A stretch of 52,208 bases of DNA, from positions 1 through 52,208 of the IMG/VR virus record IMGVR_UViG_3300027782_000116; one strand, 5' to 3'. The notes below the pieces were generated by a model. It ran no database searches. It worked only from the letters and a program-made list of their open reading frames with translations, and was not told the origin of the DNA. Origin of the DNA: a virus. Below are positions 1,681-48,319 of the stretch, piece after piece (the stretch's first letter is position 1; each line of letters starts with the position of its first letter). Made by a program: the position numbers and the translations under genes.

Positions 1681-2379
1681 TTAATCTAAAAAACCTCCCA
1701 AAATACCATCATATAACATTTTGTACTTTTTAAGGGCTATTCTTATTTCTTTAGTAGATAATGACGTCATCTCTCTCAAAGATAATAAAATCAAATTCTT
1801 GTTAAATTTGTTTCCATCACCAATTTGAAATATTTTATCAAAATTACTAAATATTTCAAGTAAAGCATATCCAAGTTTTGTTTCGTTATCTGTCAGGTTT
1901 TCAGTCTCTATAAACTCTTCTAATCTAGTAGATAGTGACGTAATCACGTCTCCATAGTCTACATGGTAATCGTCTATAACATAGGAAAGATCCGCTCTAG
2001 ATTCAATATCTTCCGATATATCTTCGTAGGAAACACTTCTGTTGTTTTCTTTATTGTCCTTTTGGATTGCACCCATAAGGTAATTCTTACATATTGTTCC
2101 AAAGTAAGAATACGCTTTATAGTTTTTAGTGTGATCAAATTTATTGATCTTAGTAATAAGGAAAGACATTGTATCAGTGTGTAAATCCTGAAATTCAAAA
2201 TCTTTTCTATATAGTTTATATCTTCGTATGATACTTTCAACCATTATAATTAATGGTTCTCGTAGAAACTCGTTGAATATTTTGTTTCTTTCTGTTTCGT
2301 CAACACTTTCTAGGTACTTGACTACCGCCTTTTCTTGATCCTCACCAAAGTAAACCTTTTGGGTTCTTTTTCTAGGCAT
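1681..2379 (-). CDS. 55: Sigma factor for late transcription (gp55-like)
   Basis: 232 residues. Residues about 50-130 read as sigma-70 region 2: DLHTDTMSFLITKINKFD, then a Tyr/Phe-rich SYFGTICKNYLMGAIQKD, the part that binds the core polymerase clamp and the -10 element. The C-terminal region ends in a helical segment (SLSTKEIRIALKKYKMLY) that could be a reduced region 4. T4 gp55, at 185 residues, is the reference: it directs host RNA polymerase to late promoters with the help of the sliding clamp. This protein is somewhat longer. Its ATG overlaps the stop of the glycosyltransferase upstream by one base. It is the obvious candidate to read the recurring TATTTAT/TATAAATA elements in this window. 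Confidence 0.85.
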   Translation of the reverse strand: MPRKRTQKVYFGEDQEKAVVKYLESVDETERNKIFNEFLREPLIIMVESIIRRYKLYRKDFEFQDLHTDTMSFLITKINKFDHTKNYKAYSYFGTICKNYLMGAIQKDNKENNRSVSYEDISEDIESRADLSYVIDDYHVDYGDVITSLSTRLEEFIETENLTDNETKLGYALLEIFSNFDKIFQIGDGNKFNKNLILLSLREMTSLSTKEIRIALKKYKMLYDGILGGFLD

Positions 2380-26674: not shown

Positions 26675-27910
26675 ATGGGAATGCCAAAAAGAAAGACCGA
26701 CATACAGGTCTACAGAGGTAAAGAACTTACTGAAAGAAGACAGGAGTTGTTAGATAGAATAACAAAATCTGATACTTTTTTACCAGACACTATTTTACAT
26801 GACGATTTAGACTCTGGGATGTTAGACTATGTAAAAAAAGAATTTAAGGTAGTTAGTGACGGGGCTAAAATACCAGTTATACCCAAAATTTTAACAATTC
26901 AAAGATGGGCACAACTTACTAATACTTGGGAGTTTTCAGATAATGACGGTAATATGAAGGTTCCTTTTGTTGCAGTTATTAGAAAACCTGACGTTCAACC
27001 AGGAACTAACCCTTCGGTAATTAGAACCGTTCCAGATAGACATCAGTTCCATTACGCCACCGTTCCTACTTGGAATGGCACTCAAATGGGTGCAGATGTT
27101 TATAAAATACCACAACCAATCCCTGTTGATATTACATATGACGTCACTATTGTCTGCACAAAAATTAGAGAATTGAATAAATTCAATAAGATTGTGATGG
27201 AAAGGTTTGCATCTAGACAGGACTATACAACCGTAAAAGGGCATTATATACCGATAGTATTGGACAGAATTGAGGATAATTCACCAATCGATCAAATAGA
27301 TGGCCGTAGATTTTACCTTCAAACATACACGTTTACTATGCTTGGGTTCTTAATTGATCAAGATGAGTTTGAGGTTAAACCAGCAATAAGTCGTTTTTTC
27401 CTTTTGAATGAGTTTGCTAAAAATACTAATTACCAAAAGAAATATATAAATAAAACTATATTATTAACTGTTGTTAATTTTAAGGCCGATGGGTTACAAA
27501 CAGCATTTAGTGTTGGTGAGAGTATTGGCATTTTATTTAGTGTTGCTATTAATGGTCTTTTACAAGAAAGAGATATTGACTATTTCCATATAGGTGGAAC
27601 ATCAAAGATAACTTTTGCGGTTGCACCAGTTGAGGGTAGTACTATAACGATAACTTACTATAAGGGTAGAAATAGTGTTTTCATAGACAACTATGGTAAA
27701 CCAATTCAAGTTAACACAGAATATTTTGTATATGATGGTTCAACATTGATTTTTCAAGTAGCTGGTTCGATTAGTAGCGTTGTTACTTTAGACATAAATG
27801 GTCTTGTTGAAGAAGAAGGTTTTGGTTTTGATATTGTTGCGTATAATCAAATAGGTTTGAATTACACCCCAGTAGTTGGTTCCAAGATTGGTGTAACATA
27901 TTTATTCTAA
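26675..27910 (+). CDS. Tail sheath stabiliser-like protein (gp15-like) with C-terminal beta repeats
   Basis: 411 residues from ATG 26675, chosen because AGAGGAG (26662-26668) sits 6 nt upstream, the best Shine-Dalgarno in the window; the longer frame from 26636 starts at a non-ATG codon inside the previous gene. Residues ~1-240 (PIPVDITYDVTIVCTKIRE, LQTYTFTMLGFLIDQDEFEV) match the outline of gp15-type tail terminators, which cap the sheath. The last ~170 residues hold two beta units (LFSVAINGLLQERDIDYFHI; VVTLDINGLVEEEGFGFDIV) typical of fibre or decoration add-ons. Followed by sheath and tube. Confidence 0.55.
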   Translation: MGMPKRKTDIQVYRGKELTERRQELLDRITKSDTFLPDTILHDDLDSGMLDYVKKEFKVVSDGAKIPVIPKILTIQRWAQLTNTWEFSDNDGNMKVPFVAVIRKPDVQPGTNPSVIRTVPDRHQFHYATVPTWNGTQMGADVYKIPQPIPVDITYDVTIVCTKIRELNKFNKIVMERFASRQDYTTVKGHYIPIVLDRIEDNSPIDQIDGRRFYLQTYTFTMLGFLIDQDEFEVKPAISRFFLLNEFAKNTNYQKKYINKTILLTVVNFKADGLQTAFSVGESIGILFSVAINGLLQERDIDYFHIGGTSKITFAVAPVEGSTITITYYKGRNSVFIDNYGKPIQVNTEYFVYDGSTLIFQVAGSISSVVTLDINGLVEEEGFGFDIVAYNQIGLNYTPVVGSKIGVTYLF

Positions 27911-28065
27911 TCTTCGTCATATAGATCTGTTTTTTTGGGTTTACAAACCTCTTCTATAAATTTTTCTAAAATTTTGTAAATTTTTAAACCATTCTTTTCA
28001 CAGTGCTTTTTTAACATCTCGTGATGTTTTTCGCTGATTTTTACGTTTTTGCTTTTGTTTTCCAT
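27907..28065 (-). CDS. Small ribbon-helix-helix-like protein
   Basis: 52 residues, too short for routine calling: starts MENKSKNVKISEKHHEMLKK, then HCEKNGLKIYKILEKFIEEV and a short acidic tail. The strand VKI, helix SEKHHEMLKKHCEKNG, helix KIYKILEKFIEEV pattern is that of ribbon-helix-helix (MetJ/Arc) DNA-binding proteins, which bind as dimers to tandem operator boxes. The stop overlaps that of the convergent gp15-like gene by four bases. A 10-bp-phased array of AAAGAT boxes starts 5 nt upstream, suggesting autoregulation and possibly control of the sheath gene on the other side. Confidence 0.6.
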   Translation of the reverse strand: MENKSKNVKISEKHHEMLKKHCEKNGLKIYKILEKFIEEVCKPKKTDLYDED

Positions 28066-28069
28066 ATTA

Positions 28070-28148
28070 AAAGATAAATAAAGATAAAAAAAGATAAAAT
28101 ACTATCTTTTAAGAGAAAAGTACGGAAATCTTTGCTAAAAACAAAGAT
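28070..28148. promoter_or_regulatory. Operator-like array of six AAAGAT/ATCTTT boxes
   Basis: AAAGAT occurs at 28070-28075, 28080-28085 and 28090-28095 (exactly 10 bp apart), inverted as ATCTTT at 28104-28109 and 28128-28133, and again as AAAGAT at 28143-28148. The last two form a perfect 7-bp inverted repeat (ATCTTTG, 7-nt loop, CAAAGAT). The array fills the gap between the RHH-like gene and the tail sheath. Confidence 0.55.
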
Positions 28149-28156
28149 ATTTATTA
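28148..28156 (+). promoter_or_regulatory. TATTTATTA element upstream of the tail sheath
   Basis: TATTTATTA starts at the last base of the AAAGAT box array and lies 36 nt before the sheath ATG. A repressor bound to the array would overlap it. Confidence 0.4.
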
Positions 28157-28192
28157 GTTAAGAATAAAAATATTATAACCAAAAATTAATCA

Positions 28193-31090
28193 ATGGCAAA
28201 TTCAAACAGAGTATTCGTCTCACCAGGTGTGTATACATCAGAGAAGGATCTAACATTCGTGGCGCAAAGCGTCGGAGTTACAACATTGGGATTAGTTGGA
28301 GAAACCTTAAAAGGACCAGCTTTTGAACCAATCTTGATTTCAAATTTCGACGAATATAAAACATATTTTGGCGGCACGTTAGCTGCAAAAGATCCTTCTG
28401 GGAATCCAAAATATGAGCTACCTTACGTAGCAAAATCTTATTTACAAGAATCAAATCAATTATTTGTAACTCGTATCTTAGGATTAACTGGTTACTTACC
28501 AGGAAAATCTTACGGTATTAAAACATTAGGTGGTTTCGCACCAACAGGTACTGGCGCAACAATGTCAGATAAATGGGATAATTCAGTAATAACTGGATCA
28601 ACATCTGCTGACCTTGCTGTTACTTCATATTCTACTTTTACAGGAAGCACGCTTTATGCTGAGTTATCTGATAAGACAGCATTTGATGGGTCTACTGTAA
28701 CTGATTATATCTATTCAAATTTTAGTGGAGTTACAGGTGGTACAGATGGTTTATGGTTCGTAATTGGACAAATACCGGATTCAGAACTACCTATTGACGC
28801 AGCTAAAGAGGTTGTATCTGCAATGACGGGCGCATTATATGCCGACTCATCATATAACAAAAATTGGTATAATGTTTATAACAACGGAACTAATAAAGTT
28901 AACTCGTATGTTTTCACTTGGAATTTGGGTGACCGTAAATTTTCTGTAAAGAAAATAGAACACAATGCTACATTGGTTAATGACGGAACTGTGGTTGCTA
29001 CTTTAAGATCTCGTGGTGAATATGCTGCAAATGTATTAAATTATAGAGTAACTGGTTCTACACACGTACAAGTAACTGGCGCAAATATTGCAACAAACCC
29101 TCTTAGTGATTTCACATTAACTGTTACTGGTTATACTGGTAATGTTACTGACACAAAAACGTTTGCATGTTCTTTAGATATGTCATCAACAAAATACATC
29201 ACTAAAGTAATTGGTGTTGAAGTTTTTGATAAAGAAAAAGCAGAATATCCAATATATGTTCACGAAGCATATCCAAACCTAGTTAAAAATTTATTTGAAC
29301 AAGGTTTGATTAGAGGTTTGAGTACTGTTGAATATGTTAAAACTGAAGGAAATAACTTTAAAGGTGAATGGGAAACCCCAGGAACTTCAACTGTTGTTTC
29401 AGAGGTTAGAGGTGGTAAGGTTTCTGATCTTTTCCAAATATTAACGGTTTCTGACGGTAACGCAGCAAACTACAATGTAAAAGTAACAATTCAAAATTTA
29501 GATTTAGACACTGGTGAATTTGATATATTGGTACGTGATTATTTCGATAGTGATGATAATCAAGTAGTACTTGAAAAGTTCACAAGATGTACAATGAACC
29601 CAGATTTACCTGGATATGTTGCAAGAAAAGTTGGTACTTCTGATGGTGAATATGAATTAAGATCTAAACATATTATGTTAGTTCTTTCTGATGAAGCGCC
29701 TACAGACGCTATCCCAGCTGGTTTTAAAGGAATTACAACATACGGCCCATCTGGATCTACTGTTGGAGATATTACATATAAAACTAAATATTTTGATGCT
29801 GGGGAGACATTGTATTATGACGCATCAGGTATAGCACAAACAACAAATGGTGATAAAGTTAAGAAAGTAAGTTTAGGTTTCTCAACACAAGATCATTTCA
29901 CTTATGATGATGATTTATTAAAATACAAAGGTAAAGACGCGTCTAAGGCAACTAAAGGTTTCCACTTATCAGTTAATGCGGCAACAATTACTGGAACTTC
30001 TGGTGAAGCGTTGTTTACAACAACCGCATATGATTTAGAAGGTGTTGACAAAGATAAATTAGCAAAGGCGACATACCGTAAATTTACAATGCCAGTATTT
30101 GGTGGATTTGATGGTTGGGATATCTACAGAAGAACTAGAACATATGGTGATGGTTTCATCTTTGGTAAAACAACATATTCTGCTGGAAGTGATACTAATG
30201 GTGGTGTATTCAGTCACACAGGTGGTAACTCAGATTATTATGCTTACTTACAAGGAATTAACACATATGCTAACCCTGAAGCAATTGATATAAATCTATT
30301 TGCAACTCCAGGTATTAACTGGAACGATCATAGCTCATTAGTAAATCAAGCAATTGATATTATTGAGAATGATAGAGCAGATTCATTATATATCATTAAC
30401 TCACCAAACTTTACTGGCACAACCGGTACTGCTGAAGTGGTTTCTGCTATTCAAGATTTAGCATTGGATTCTAACTACTCAGCAACATATTGGCCTTGGA
30501 TTCAAGTAAGAGACACAGATAACGCAACACAACTTTATATCCCACCAACAGGTGAAGTATTAAAGAACATTGCCTTAACTGACAATGTAGCTTATCCTTG
30601 GTTCGCAGTCGCTGGTTACTCTAGAGGTATTGTTACTTCAATCAAAGCATCTAAAAAATTAACTTTAGATGATAGAGATGAATTATACAAGAATAGAATT
30701 AATCCAATTGCAACATTCTCTGATACAGGCACTATTATCTGGGGTAACAAAACGTTACAAGTTAGAGAATCAGCACTCGATAGAATCAACGTAAGAAGAT
30801 TATTATTGAGAGCAAGAAAGTTAATCTCTGCAGTAGCGGTAAGATTATTGTTTGAACAAAATGATGATCAGGTTAGACAAGAGTTCTTAAGATTGGTAAA
30901 TCCTATCTTAGAATCAATCAAGAAAGAAAGAGGTCTTTATGACTTCCGTGTAACAGTATCAAACGATCCTGAGGATATTGATGCTAACACATTAAGAGGT
31001 AAAATCTACGTTAAACCAACTAGAGCGTTGGAATTCATTGATGTAGAGTTTGTTATCACTCCAACTGGAGCTTCTTTTGAGAATGTTTAA
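28193..31090 (+). CDS. 18: Contractile tail sheath protein (gp18-like)
   Basis: 965 residues (T4 gp18 is 659), the outer tube that contracts to drive the tail tube through the host envelope. N-terminal SPGVYTSEKDLTFV is the classic sheath start. The C-terminal domain (about 835-965) is conserved: DRINVRRLLLRARKLIS, VRQEFLRLVNPILESIKKERGLYDFRV and YVKPTRALEFIDVEFVITP. The middle (~100-600), Thr/Gly-rich and variable, holds the extra length and is likely exposed on the tail surface. It is followed at once by a strong terminator and precedes the tail tube. Confidence 0.97.
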   Translation: MANSNRVFVSPGVYTSEKDLTFVAQSVGVTTLGLVGETLKGPAFEPILISNFDEYKTYFGGTLAAKDPSGNPKYELPYVAKSYLQESNQLFVTRILGLTGYLPGKSYGIKTLGGFAPTGTGATMSDKWDNSVITGSTSADLAVTSYSTFTGSTLYAELSDKTAFDGSTVTDYIYSNFSGVTGGTDGLWFVIGQIPDSELPIDAAKEVVSAMTGALYADSSYNKNWYNVYNNGTNKVNSYVFTWNLGDRKFSVKKIEHNATLVNDGTVVATLRSRGEYAANVLNYRVTGSTHVQVTGANIATNPLSDFTLTVTGYTGNVTDTKTFACSLDMSSTKYITKVIGVEVFDKEKAEYPIYVHEAYPNLVKNLFEQGLIRGLSTVEYVKTEGNNFKGEWETPGTSTVVSEVRGGKVSDLFQILTVSDGNAANYNVKVTIQNLDLDTGEFDILVRDYFDSDDNQVVLEKFTRCTMNPDLPGYVARKVGTSDGEYELRSKHIMLVLSDEAPTDAIPAGFKGITTYGPSGSTVGDITYKTKYFDAGETLYYDASGIAQTTNGDKVKKVSLGFSTQDHFTYDDDLLKYKGKDASKATKGFHLSVNAATITGTSGEALFTTTAYDLEGVDKDKLAKATYRKFTMPVFGGFDGWDIYRRTRTYGDGFIFGKTTYSAGSDTNGGVFSHTGGNSDYYAYLQGINTYANPEAIDINLFATPGINWNDHSSLVNQAIDIIENDRADSLYIINSPNFTGTTGTAEVVSAIQDLALDSNYSATYWPWIQVRDTDNATQLYIPPTGEVLKNIALTDNVAYPWFAVAGYSRGIVTSIKASKKLTLDDRDELYKNRINPIATFSDTGTIIWGNKTLQVRESALDRINVRRLLLRARKLISAVAVRLLFEQNDDQVRQEFLRLVNPILESIKKERGLYDFRVTVSNDPEDIDANTLRGKIYVKPTRALEFIDVEFVITPTGASFENV

Positions 31091-31858: not shown

Positions 31859-31884
31859 TATTAAATTTCAAATAAAACTATATG

Positions 31885-31920
31885 AAATCCGTATACCTTT
31901 AGATAGGGTACGGATTTTTT
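31885..31920 (+). terminator. Intrinsic terminator after tail tube
   Basis: AAATCCGTA (31885-31893) pairs perfectly with TACGGATTT (31909-31917), 15-nt loop that can extend the stem (ACC/GGG), with a run of six T at 31915-31920. 27 nt after the tube stop. Confidence 0.85.
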
Positions 31921-31929
31921 ATTTAAAAG

Positions 31930-31943
31930 GTTCCATGTGGAAC
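31930..31943. promoter_or_regulatory. 14-bp dyad GTTCCA-TG-TGGAAC
   Basis: Perfect 6-bp inverted repeat with a 2-bp spacer, 10 bp after the tube terminator and 64 bp before the gp26-like ATG. Its form is that of a protein-binding operator; the protein is unknown. There is no T-run after it. Confidence 0.35.
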
Positions 31944-32006
31944 TATGACTTGATTTAATTTAAAAATTAGTGTATATTACTTAAAATAGAATAAAACTAA
32001 ATATAT

Positions 32007-46983: not shown

Positions 46984-47289
46984 ATGATATCAGGATCAGC
47001 GGCATTGACCGGAACAACATCAACTAGAAACACATTATCATATATTAATGATTTAATAACTGGTGCAACAGCAGAAGGTAAATATCAAATATTTGTTGGG
47101 CAAGAGCATATAGATGAATCTATGATTAACATCTTAAGAACAACATATGGCTACCGCGTCACAAGTAAAAATAATTTAATGGGGACATATAATGACTACT
47201 TAATTAGCTGGTTACCGGCACCAACACCAACACCAACGGCTACACCAACACCAACTGCCACACCGACGCCTACTCCAACACCTGCTTAA
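46984..47289 (+). CDS. Small protein with a Pro-Thr tail
   Basis: 101 residues. The first ~77 form a compact alpha/beta unit (TRNTLSYINDLITGATAEGK, QIFVGQEHIDESMINILRTTYGYRV) and the rest is a (Pro-Thr)n tail, LPAPTPTPTATPTPTATPTP to the end. The tail matches the linkers of the large fibre at 11913-15578 in composition and codon choice. Possibly a head or tail decoration protein with an extended arm. Last gene before the terminator at 47317. Confidence 0.6.
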   Translation: MISGSAALTGTTSTRNTLSYINDLITGATAEGKYQIFVGQEHIDESMINILRTTYGYRVTSKNNLMGTYNDYLISWLPAPTPTPTATPTPTATPTPTPTPA

Positions 47290-48243: not shown

Positions 48244-48254
48244 TTAAGATGTTT

Positions 48255-48306
48255 GAGGGCCCTTGTCTAAATTTTGGGTAAAGGGAGACAGGGTGCCCTC
48301 TTTTTT
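48255..48306 (+). terminator. Long intrinsic terminator between SSB and UvsX
   Basis: GAGGGCCCTTGTCT (48255-48268) pairs with AGACAGGG-T-GCCCTC (48286-48300): 14 bp with one bulged T and one G-U, 17-nt loop, then TTTTTT (48301-48306). It is the strongest hairpin in the window. The UvsX ATG is only 13 nt beyond, so it must also act as a UvsX leader element if any read-through occurs. Confidence 0.9.
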
Positions 48307-48319
48307 AAAAAAAAATATT

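What the first reader, a model, noticed from the sequence alone, without database searches (positions are those of the whole stretch)
28070..28148. 10-bp-phased AAAGAT boxes between an RHH-like gene and tail sheath
Three AAAGAT boxes at exact 10-bp spacing, plus three more in either direction, two forming a perfect 7-bp inverted repeat, occupy the gap between the 52-residue protein and the sheath gene. RHH repressors bind such arrays. The simplest model is an autoregulated switch that also controls sheath expression. A-rich composition raises the chance level, but the exact phasing is unexpected.
Basis: partly seen in the sequence, partly recalled or inferred. Interest (0 to 1): 0.7.

Follow-up and report, generated by a model that had tools for sequence, protein, structure and literature searches.

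The report
Phage RHH repressor's 10-bp operator array

Summary
Three AAAGAT boxes 10 bp apart plus one inverted box (window 28070-28109) form one array. The other two boxes (28128-28148) belong to a second, separate element at the sheath promoter. Three boxes at exactly 10 bp occurred in 0 of 100,000 dinucleotide shuffles. In relatives the array has 3-5 slots with core [G/T]AT[A/C] in strict 10-bp register: 380 of 397 boxes in 99 distinct intergenic sequences. Slots invert in place about nine times on a tree. Substitutions are about ten times rarer at the central AT than in the spacers. The array lies 23-24 bp, plus whole 10-bp steps, from the sheath element in 99 of 99. The 52-aa protein is RHH-like by profile and fold. 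Among sheath-bearing contigs with enough upstream DNA, the single contig lacking the gene also lacks the array, yet keeps the sheath element. Best explanation: RHH dimers, one per slot, fill the array and repress the RHH gene; a role at the sheath promoter is likely but unproven. A conserved C-terminal tail suggests a protein partner. The kind is known (omega, ParR, Arc); the variant is new.

The parts
27907..28065 (-). 52-aa ribbon-helix-helix protein gene, divergent from the sheath gene; stop overlaps the stop of the + strand gene ending at 27910
   Evidence: phrog_3180 Arc-like repressor E=1.4e-4; AF2 model pLDDT 75 with helices 12-25 and 29-40; PDB fold hits are mostly RHH proteins; pN/pS 0.23 over 54 orthologue genes
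28073..28076 (+). slot 1 core GATA (box AAAGATA 28070-28076)
28083..28086 (+). slot 2 core GATA (box AAAGATA 28080-28086)
28093..28096 (+). slot 3 core GATA (box AAAGATA 28090-28096)
28103..28106 (-). slot 4 core TATC (inverted box TATCTTT 28103-28109), same 10-bp register
28074..28080 (-). TATTTAT (read on -) overlapping slot 1: candidate late-type promoter of the RHH gene; ATAAATA present in the array region of 82 of 99 distinct sequences
28127..28154 (+). sheath promoter element AATCTTTG-CTAAAAA-CAAAGATATTTAT: mirrored arms upstream of and overlapping late-type promoter TATTTAT (28148-28154)
   Evidence: core columns invariant or nearly so in 99 sequences; kept in L030, which lacks RHH and array; at the sheath locus in 16 of 16 contigs
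28193..31090 (+). tail sheath gene (965 aa)
   Evidence: phrog_23 E=9.9e-64; PF04984, PF17482
1681..2379 (-). gp55-like late sigma factor, the likely reader of TATTTAT promoters (inference)
   Evidence: phrog_234 E=6.3e-4; 76-87% identical relatives in 6 of 10 contigs

Best explanation
The array is the operator of the 52-residue RHH protein. Shown by sequence: strict 10-bp slots with a near-symmetric 4-bp core that can be inverted in place, lost together with the gene, and phase-locked to the sheath promoter element. Inferred: one C2-symmetric RHH dimer sits on each slot; dimers 10 bp apart lie on one face of the helix and bind cooperatively as a short filament of 3-5 dimers. In the window the filament covers the RHH gene's own late-type promoter (TATTTATC at slot 1) up to its start codon, so the protein shuts its own gene off as it accumulates late in infection. 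The filament ends a fixed 23-24 bp before the sheath promoter element, so it probably also touches or tunes sheath (tail operon) transcription. The conserved C-terminal tail KKxD[ILM]Y then acts as a docking peptide for a partner, possibly part of the transcription machinery. Confidence: operator of this RHH protein with autorepression about 0.75; direct effect on sheath about 0.4.
For: RHH identity: phrog_3180; sub-threshold PF10723 and ParG hits; ParG and SvtR among 6 weak PDB sequence hits; Foldseek PDB list dominated by RHH proteins, VIA-align Z up to 5.7 to RHH domains. Array: shuffles; 380 of 397 cores in register in 99 distinct sequences; mean Fitch changes per column 0.5 and 1.0 at the central AT, 3.75 and 4.0 at the outer core bases, 9.8-13.8 at period positions 4, 5, 6 and 9, 7.5 at 7, 2.75 at 8; about nine in-slot inversions, with palindromic intermediates GATC and TATA seen. 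Linkage: of 294 sheath-bearing sequences, the only 2 loci that lack RHH and have more than 149 bp of upstream DNA are one contig, L030/L234; it has no GATA or TATC in the 75 bp before the sheath element and no RHH in its 83 kb. Dedicated site: the three-slot pattern matches in 14 of 16 contigs of 76-336 kb, in each only beside the sheath element (coordinates). Phase to sheath: last filled slot to AATCTTT 23-24 bp in 91, 33-34 in 7, 44 in 1 of 99, with 70 different spacer sequences, while the sheath leader varies 35-42 bp.
Against: No binding, expression or dimer data. AF2 on a single chain does not form the beta strand, Foldseek E-values are weak (best 0.96), and Z values are middling. Only one lineage lost the gene, so co-loss is a single event. 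17 of 99 arrays lack the TATTTAT toward RHH, so the promoter assignment for RHH is not general. A protein that only repressed itself would be pointless, so some function is missing from this account. Sequences are related, and many loci re-sample the same contigs, so the counts are not independent.
Confidence: 0.72

Rival explanations
1. The boxes are promoter elements, not operators: TATCTTT resembles the Bacteroidetes -7 box (TAnnTTTG, recalled) and TATTTATC resembles the phage late promoter, so the array would be stacked promoters for the RHH gene.
For: TATTTAT is enriched upstream of genes: 15 of 46 sense against 5 of 46 antisense, shuffles mean 2.3, max 7; 25 of 71 against 6 of 71 in an 80-kb piece of contig G001. 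In the window slot 1 overlaps one. Chen et al. predict Bacteroidetes hosts for similar lake phages (PMC9723584, abstract and passages read).
Against: Promoters do not need strict 10-bp direct spacing, nor in-place inversion. The slot nearest the sheath is mostly inverted (84 of 99). 17 of 99 arrays keep slots without TATTTAT.
Confidence: 0.12
2. The inverted pair of boxes is a hairpin or terminator acting on RNA.
For: Slots 3-4 and the sheath arms can fold: -5.2 and -5.1 kcal/mol.
Against: z-scores only -2.5 and -1.4; no Rfam match; the slot nearest the sheath is direct, so no such hairpin, in 7 of 99; slots 1-3 are unexplained.
Confidence: 0.04
3. A centromere-like or positioning site (ParR/parC or omega/parS style), with the RHH tail binding a motor.
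For: RHH protein, 10-bp repeats by its own gene, direct and inverted units used alike, conserved flexible tail: these features are described for ParR, ParG or omega in PMC5016525 (sections 6 and 7 read).
Against: No match over the cut-off for StbA/ParM PF06406 (0 of 10 contigs) or ParA-type PF01656 (0 of 10); contigs may be fragments and other motors were not searched. Only 3-5 slots.
Confidence: 0.06
4. The RHH is an antitoxin of a toxin-antitoxin pair.
For: Many RHH antitoxins autoregulate through such sites (established knowledge); the fold hits include TacA, MazE and VapB antitoxins.
Against: No small partner gene: neighbours are the sheath gene and a 411/424-aa + strand gene. The gene stands alone on its strand.
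Confidence: 0.03

Closest known systems
Omega repressor of plasmid pSM19035 (RHH)
   Same: Small RHH protein; array of direct and inverted units bound alike because of dimer pseudo-symmetry; array overlaps its own promoter (PMC5016525 section 6)
   Different: Units are heptads there (title of a reference seen), 10 bp here; belongs to a partition/copy-number circuit with a motor protein, for which no match over cut-off was found here
ParR/parC (type II partition)
   Same: RHH domain plus conserved unstructured C-terminal tail; 10-bp repeats in the ParR-DNA structure; represses its own promoter (PMC5016525 section 7)
   Different: ParR has more helices; longer iteron arrays; needs ParM, not found here
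ParG of plasmid TP228
   Same: Top Foldseek PDB hit (TM 0.63 by query) and a weak sequence hit (E 0.26); repressor on AT-rich direct and inverted repeats
   Different: Its flexible tail is N-terminal; partition protein
Arc repressor of phage P22
   Same: Phage RHH of about 53 aa; phrog_3180 'Arc-like repressor' is the only family hit at E<=0.001 in PHROGs
   Different: Operator recalled as two half-sites, not a 10-bp array; different phage type and gene context
MetJ
   Same: RHH dimers on tandem boxes (recalled)
   Different: 8-bp boxes and a metabolite corepressor (recalled)

Membership tests
RHH (Arc/MetJ/ParG) superfamily | beta-alpha-alpha sequence/fold | tested here: met
   phrog_3180 E=1.4e-4 over residues 1-42; two helices at the right places and RHH proteins dominating the fold hits; strand itself not formed in the single-chain model
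RHH (Arc/MetJ/ParG) superfamily | dimer that inserts the two-stranded ribbon in the major groove | not testable with these tools
   single chains only; the strand segment is the most constrained part measured (pN/pS 0.12)
RHH autorepressor with multi-unit operator | tandem/inverted units at fixed spacing by its own gene | tested here: met
RHH autorepressor with multi-unit operator | binding and repression | not testable with these tools
   needs gel shift, footprint, reporter
Plasmid-type partition system (ParMRC, ParFG, delta-omega) | partner motor NTPase | tested here: inconclusive
   PF06406 and PF01656: 0 of 10 contigs over cut-off, and no such gene beside the RHH; contigs may be incomplete and other motor families were not searched
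Type II toxin-antitoxin antitoxin | cotranscribed toxin gene | tested here: not met
   no adjacent small gene on the same strand
T4-like late transcription unit | gp55-type sigma and a shared short late promoter | tested here: met
   phrog_234 E=6.3e-4; TATTTAT enrichment. TATTTATA is the reverse complement of the T4 late motif TATAAATA (recalled; the T4 review PMC2988020 did not hold that string)

The most novel reading that the evidence does not exclude
The RHH filament is not mainly a repressor but a scaffold: 3-5 dimers, locked in phase with the sheath promoter, present 6-10 copies of the conserved tail KKxD[ILM]Y to the phage's late transcription complex (sigma, RNA polymerase or sliding clamp) or to a positioning partner. 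That would be a sequence-specific, enhancer-like activator in a T4-like late system, whose classic version needs no upstream recognition element (PMC2988020 passages). Like the T4 clamp-binding ends (hydrophobic and acidic C-terminus behind a linker of variable length; same passages), the tail sits behind a variable linker; but it does not resemble this phage group's own gp55 C-terminus, typically GILGGFL[DE].
Probability: 0.12. Interest if true: 0.75.

Novelty: new variant of a known kind. Interest (0 to 1): 0.5.

Why it matters
It gives a compact, testable cis/trans regulatory pair in uncultured phages that appear to infect freshwater Bacteroidota, with the phylogenetic footprint already resolved to single bases. 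If the array acts on the sheath promoter, it would be a case of a dedicated regulator of one tail operon inside a T4-like late programme. The in-place inversions also give natural evidence for how a symmetric RHH dimer reads DNA.

Tried and rejected
Clamp-binding tail: compared C-termini of gp55-like and PolB relatives with the RHH tail; no likeness. Further operators in the genomes: the three-slot pattern had no second site away from the sheath locus; the two-slot pattern RGATAN5RGATA gave scattered matches, above the backwards control in some of the 16 contigs partly because of the locus itself, so weak extra sites are not excluded. Bacterial homes for the RHH: 46 pattern matches in genome contigs (84,980 species), 0 confirmed; GenBank phages: none at E<=1. 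Described relatives of the sheath with annotation (HTVC008M, immuto, Mel-JY01) list no such gene beside it. Of the 80 immuto-like loci, 38 were examined (picked by hand to spread over the list): 0 of 38 had an RHH by motif or an array, 38 of 38 had TATTTAT within 120 bp. RNA structure: rejected. Element 2 as two more slots of the array: rejected, wrong register and kept in L030. bS21 in 5 of 10 contigs agrees with the lake-phage paper PMC9723584; that the groups are the same was not tested. No tRNA genes.

Papers: PMC9723584 outline, abstract and found passages; PMC5016525 found passages and sections 6 and 7; PMC3325190 and PMC2988020 found passages; all others only as search listings. The search for both 'ribbon-helix-helix' and 'tail sheath' gave 3 papers, none about this by title and abstract start.

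Caveats on counts: loci L082-L161 and L162-L167 were collected through the RHH itself and cannot count for its presence; loci overlap in contigs, and distinct contigs were not counted; 24 of 294 sheath sequences were dropped for short or cut upstream DNA or a start not reading ATG, and 3 (L030, L234, L192) because no ATG start of an RHH was found; L192 has the RHH by tblastn. Gene models are longest-ORF calls.

Full report
Setting. The window is an IMG/VR virus record, 32% GC, from a T4-like myovirus: sheath, tube, baseplate hub, a helicase and a gp55-like late sigma. The nearest described tail gene order is that of Flavobacterium phage immuto. Five of ten large relatives' contigs carry ribosomal protein bS21, as do the lake phages that Chen et al. 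assign to Bacteroidetes hosts (PMC9723584, abstract and passages). The host is therefore probably a freshwater Bacteroidota; this is inference.

Observation. The six boxes and the 7-bp inverted repeat are exactly as described. Three AAAGAT at 10-bp spacing occurred in none of 100,000 dinucleotide shuffles of the same gap, and three at any equal spacing of 6-30 bp in 7.

The protein. It matches phrog_3180, Arc-like repressor. AlphaFold2 with 36 aligned sequences gives two helices (12-25, 29-40), pLDDT 75. PDB fold hits are headed by ParG, Arc, AvtR, McdB, VapB and CopG, with E-values near 1 or above that alone prove little, but the list is mostly RHH proteins; VIA-align gives Z up to 5.7, again mostly RHH domains. 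Over 54 orthologue genes pN/pS is 0.23 overall, 0.12 in the strand and 0.14 in the tail (residues 44-50), against 0.34 at residues 41-44. The linker before the tail varies in length.

Relatives. Sheath queries returned 80 loci each; an RHH query returned 80 of 563 confirmed. Among 294 sheath-bearing sequences 278 have the RHH; of the 16 without, 14 have at most 149 bp upstream or a cut start and two are one contig, L030/L234. After dropping 24 short or cut ones and 3 without an ATG start of the RHH, 267 loci give 99 distinct intergenic sequences. These contain relatives collected through the RHH, so they describe the array, not how often the gene occurs.

Array anatomy. Cores GATA or TATC fall in one 10-bp register in 380 of 397 cases; the register was taken as the majority per sequence, a mild bias. 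Arrays have 3 filled slots in 28, 4 in 64 and 5 in 7 of 99. On a sheath tree, parsimony changes per column average 0.5 and 1.0 at the central A and T, 3.75 and 4.0 at the outer core bases, 2.75 two bases before the core, and 7.5-13.75 elsewhere in the period. A slot can change from GATA to TATC without leaving its four bases: about nine such changes, and the palindromic half-way forms GATC and TATA occur. This is what one symmetric dimer per slot predicts.

Link to the sheath promoter. The distance from the last filled slot to the sheath element is 23-24 bp in 91, 33-34 in 7 and 44 in 1 of 99, i.e. one helical phase, over 70 different spacer sequences; the sheath leader behind TATTTAT varies 35-42 bp. 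The distance to the RHH start codon varies from 1 to 7 bp, or 16-17 bp where the first slot is degenerate. The array is thus held at least as tightly to the sheath side as to its own gene.

The second element. AATCTTT, AAAA and AAGATATTTAT are invariant or nearly so in the 99 sequences while the flanks vary freely. It occurs at the sheath locus in 16 of 16 contigs, with one extra match elsewhere in two of them. TATTTAT is the probable late promoter: 15 of 46 upstream regions sense against 5 antisense in the window, 25 against 6 of 71 in 80 kb of G001, and 38 of 38 examined immuto-like sheath genes. L030 keeps this element though it has neither RHH nor array; so the element does not depend on the RHH.

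Dedication. Of 16 contigs the three-slot pattern was found in 14, in each at one cluster by the sheath element; not in G004 (a slot is inverted) nor in G005, the L030 contig. So no second array of this kind was seen; double sites cannot be judged.

Mechanism. In the window slot 1 overlaps TATTTATC, a promoter-like site 15 bp before the RHH start; if transcription starts near the start codon, slots 1-4 lie at about -7, -17, -27 and -37, the place for a repressor. For the sheath, with a start near 28161, the slots lie about -56 to -87, a place for an activator or for DNA shaping. These start sites are assumptions. Hence autorepression is the main claim and sheath control the second, weaker one. 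Because a regulator that served only itself would hardly be kept in every sheath-linked relative with enough upstream DNA but one, either sheath control or the tail's partner must supply the benefit.

Known kin. Omega binds direct and inverted units alike through pseudo-symmetry, and ParR combines RHH, 10-bp repeats and a conserved C-terminal tail (PMC5016525 sections 6, 7). No ParM- or ParA-type partner passed the cut-off in 10 contigs. It works like these repressors; it is not shown to be a partition protein.

Verdict. Real, conserved, biologically sensible, of a known kind in a new setting.

Noticed in passing
window, e.g. 11140-, 16359+, 26161+, 28193+, 31370+, 32892+, 34907+ gene starts: A shared TATTTAT motif 7-47 bp before 15 of 46 genes, also before immuto-phage tail genes: a likely late promoter of Bacteroidota T4-like phages.
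   Followed up: partly
1681-2379 (-): Divergent gp55-like late sigma factor, C-terminus GILGGFLD.
   Followed up: partly
27907-28065 C-terminus: Tail KKxD[ILM]Y[GD] under strong protein-level selection behind a variable linker; partner unknown.
   Followed up: partly
immuto-like loci L298-L377, about 90 bp upstream of sheath: A second TATTTAT near -92 and a GGTTT...AAA block before the sheath promoter recur in many of the 38 examined loci: perhaps a small transcript or another sheath-specific element.
   Followed up: no
G001 122155-122346 (-), bS21 region: The short gene at the bS21 match of a 336-kb relative has TATTTAT 12 bp before its start, fitting late expression of phage bS21.
   Followed up: no
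31859-32006 and 48244-48319: GC-richer inverted repeats followed by T runs in two gaps, likely terminators (seen in the output).
   Followed up: no
46984-47289 (+): 101-aa ORF ending in a TPTPTATP repeat.
   Followed up: no
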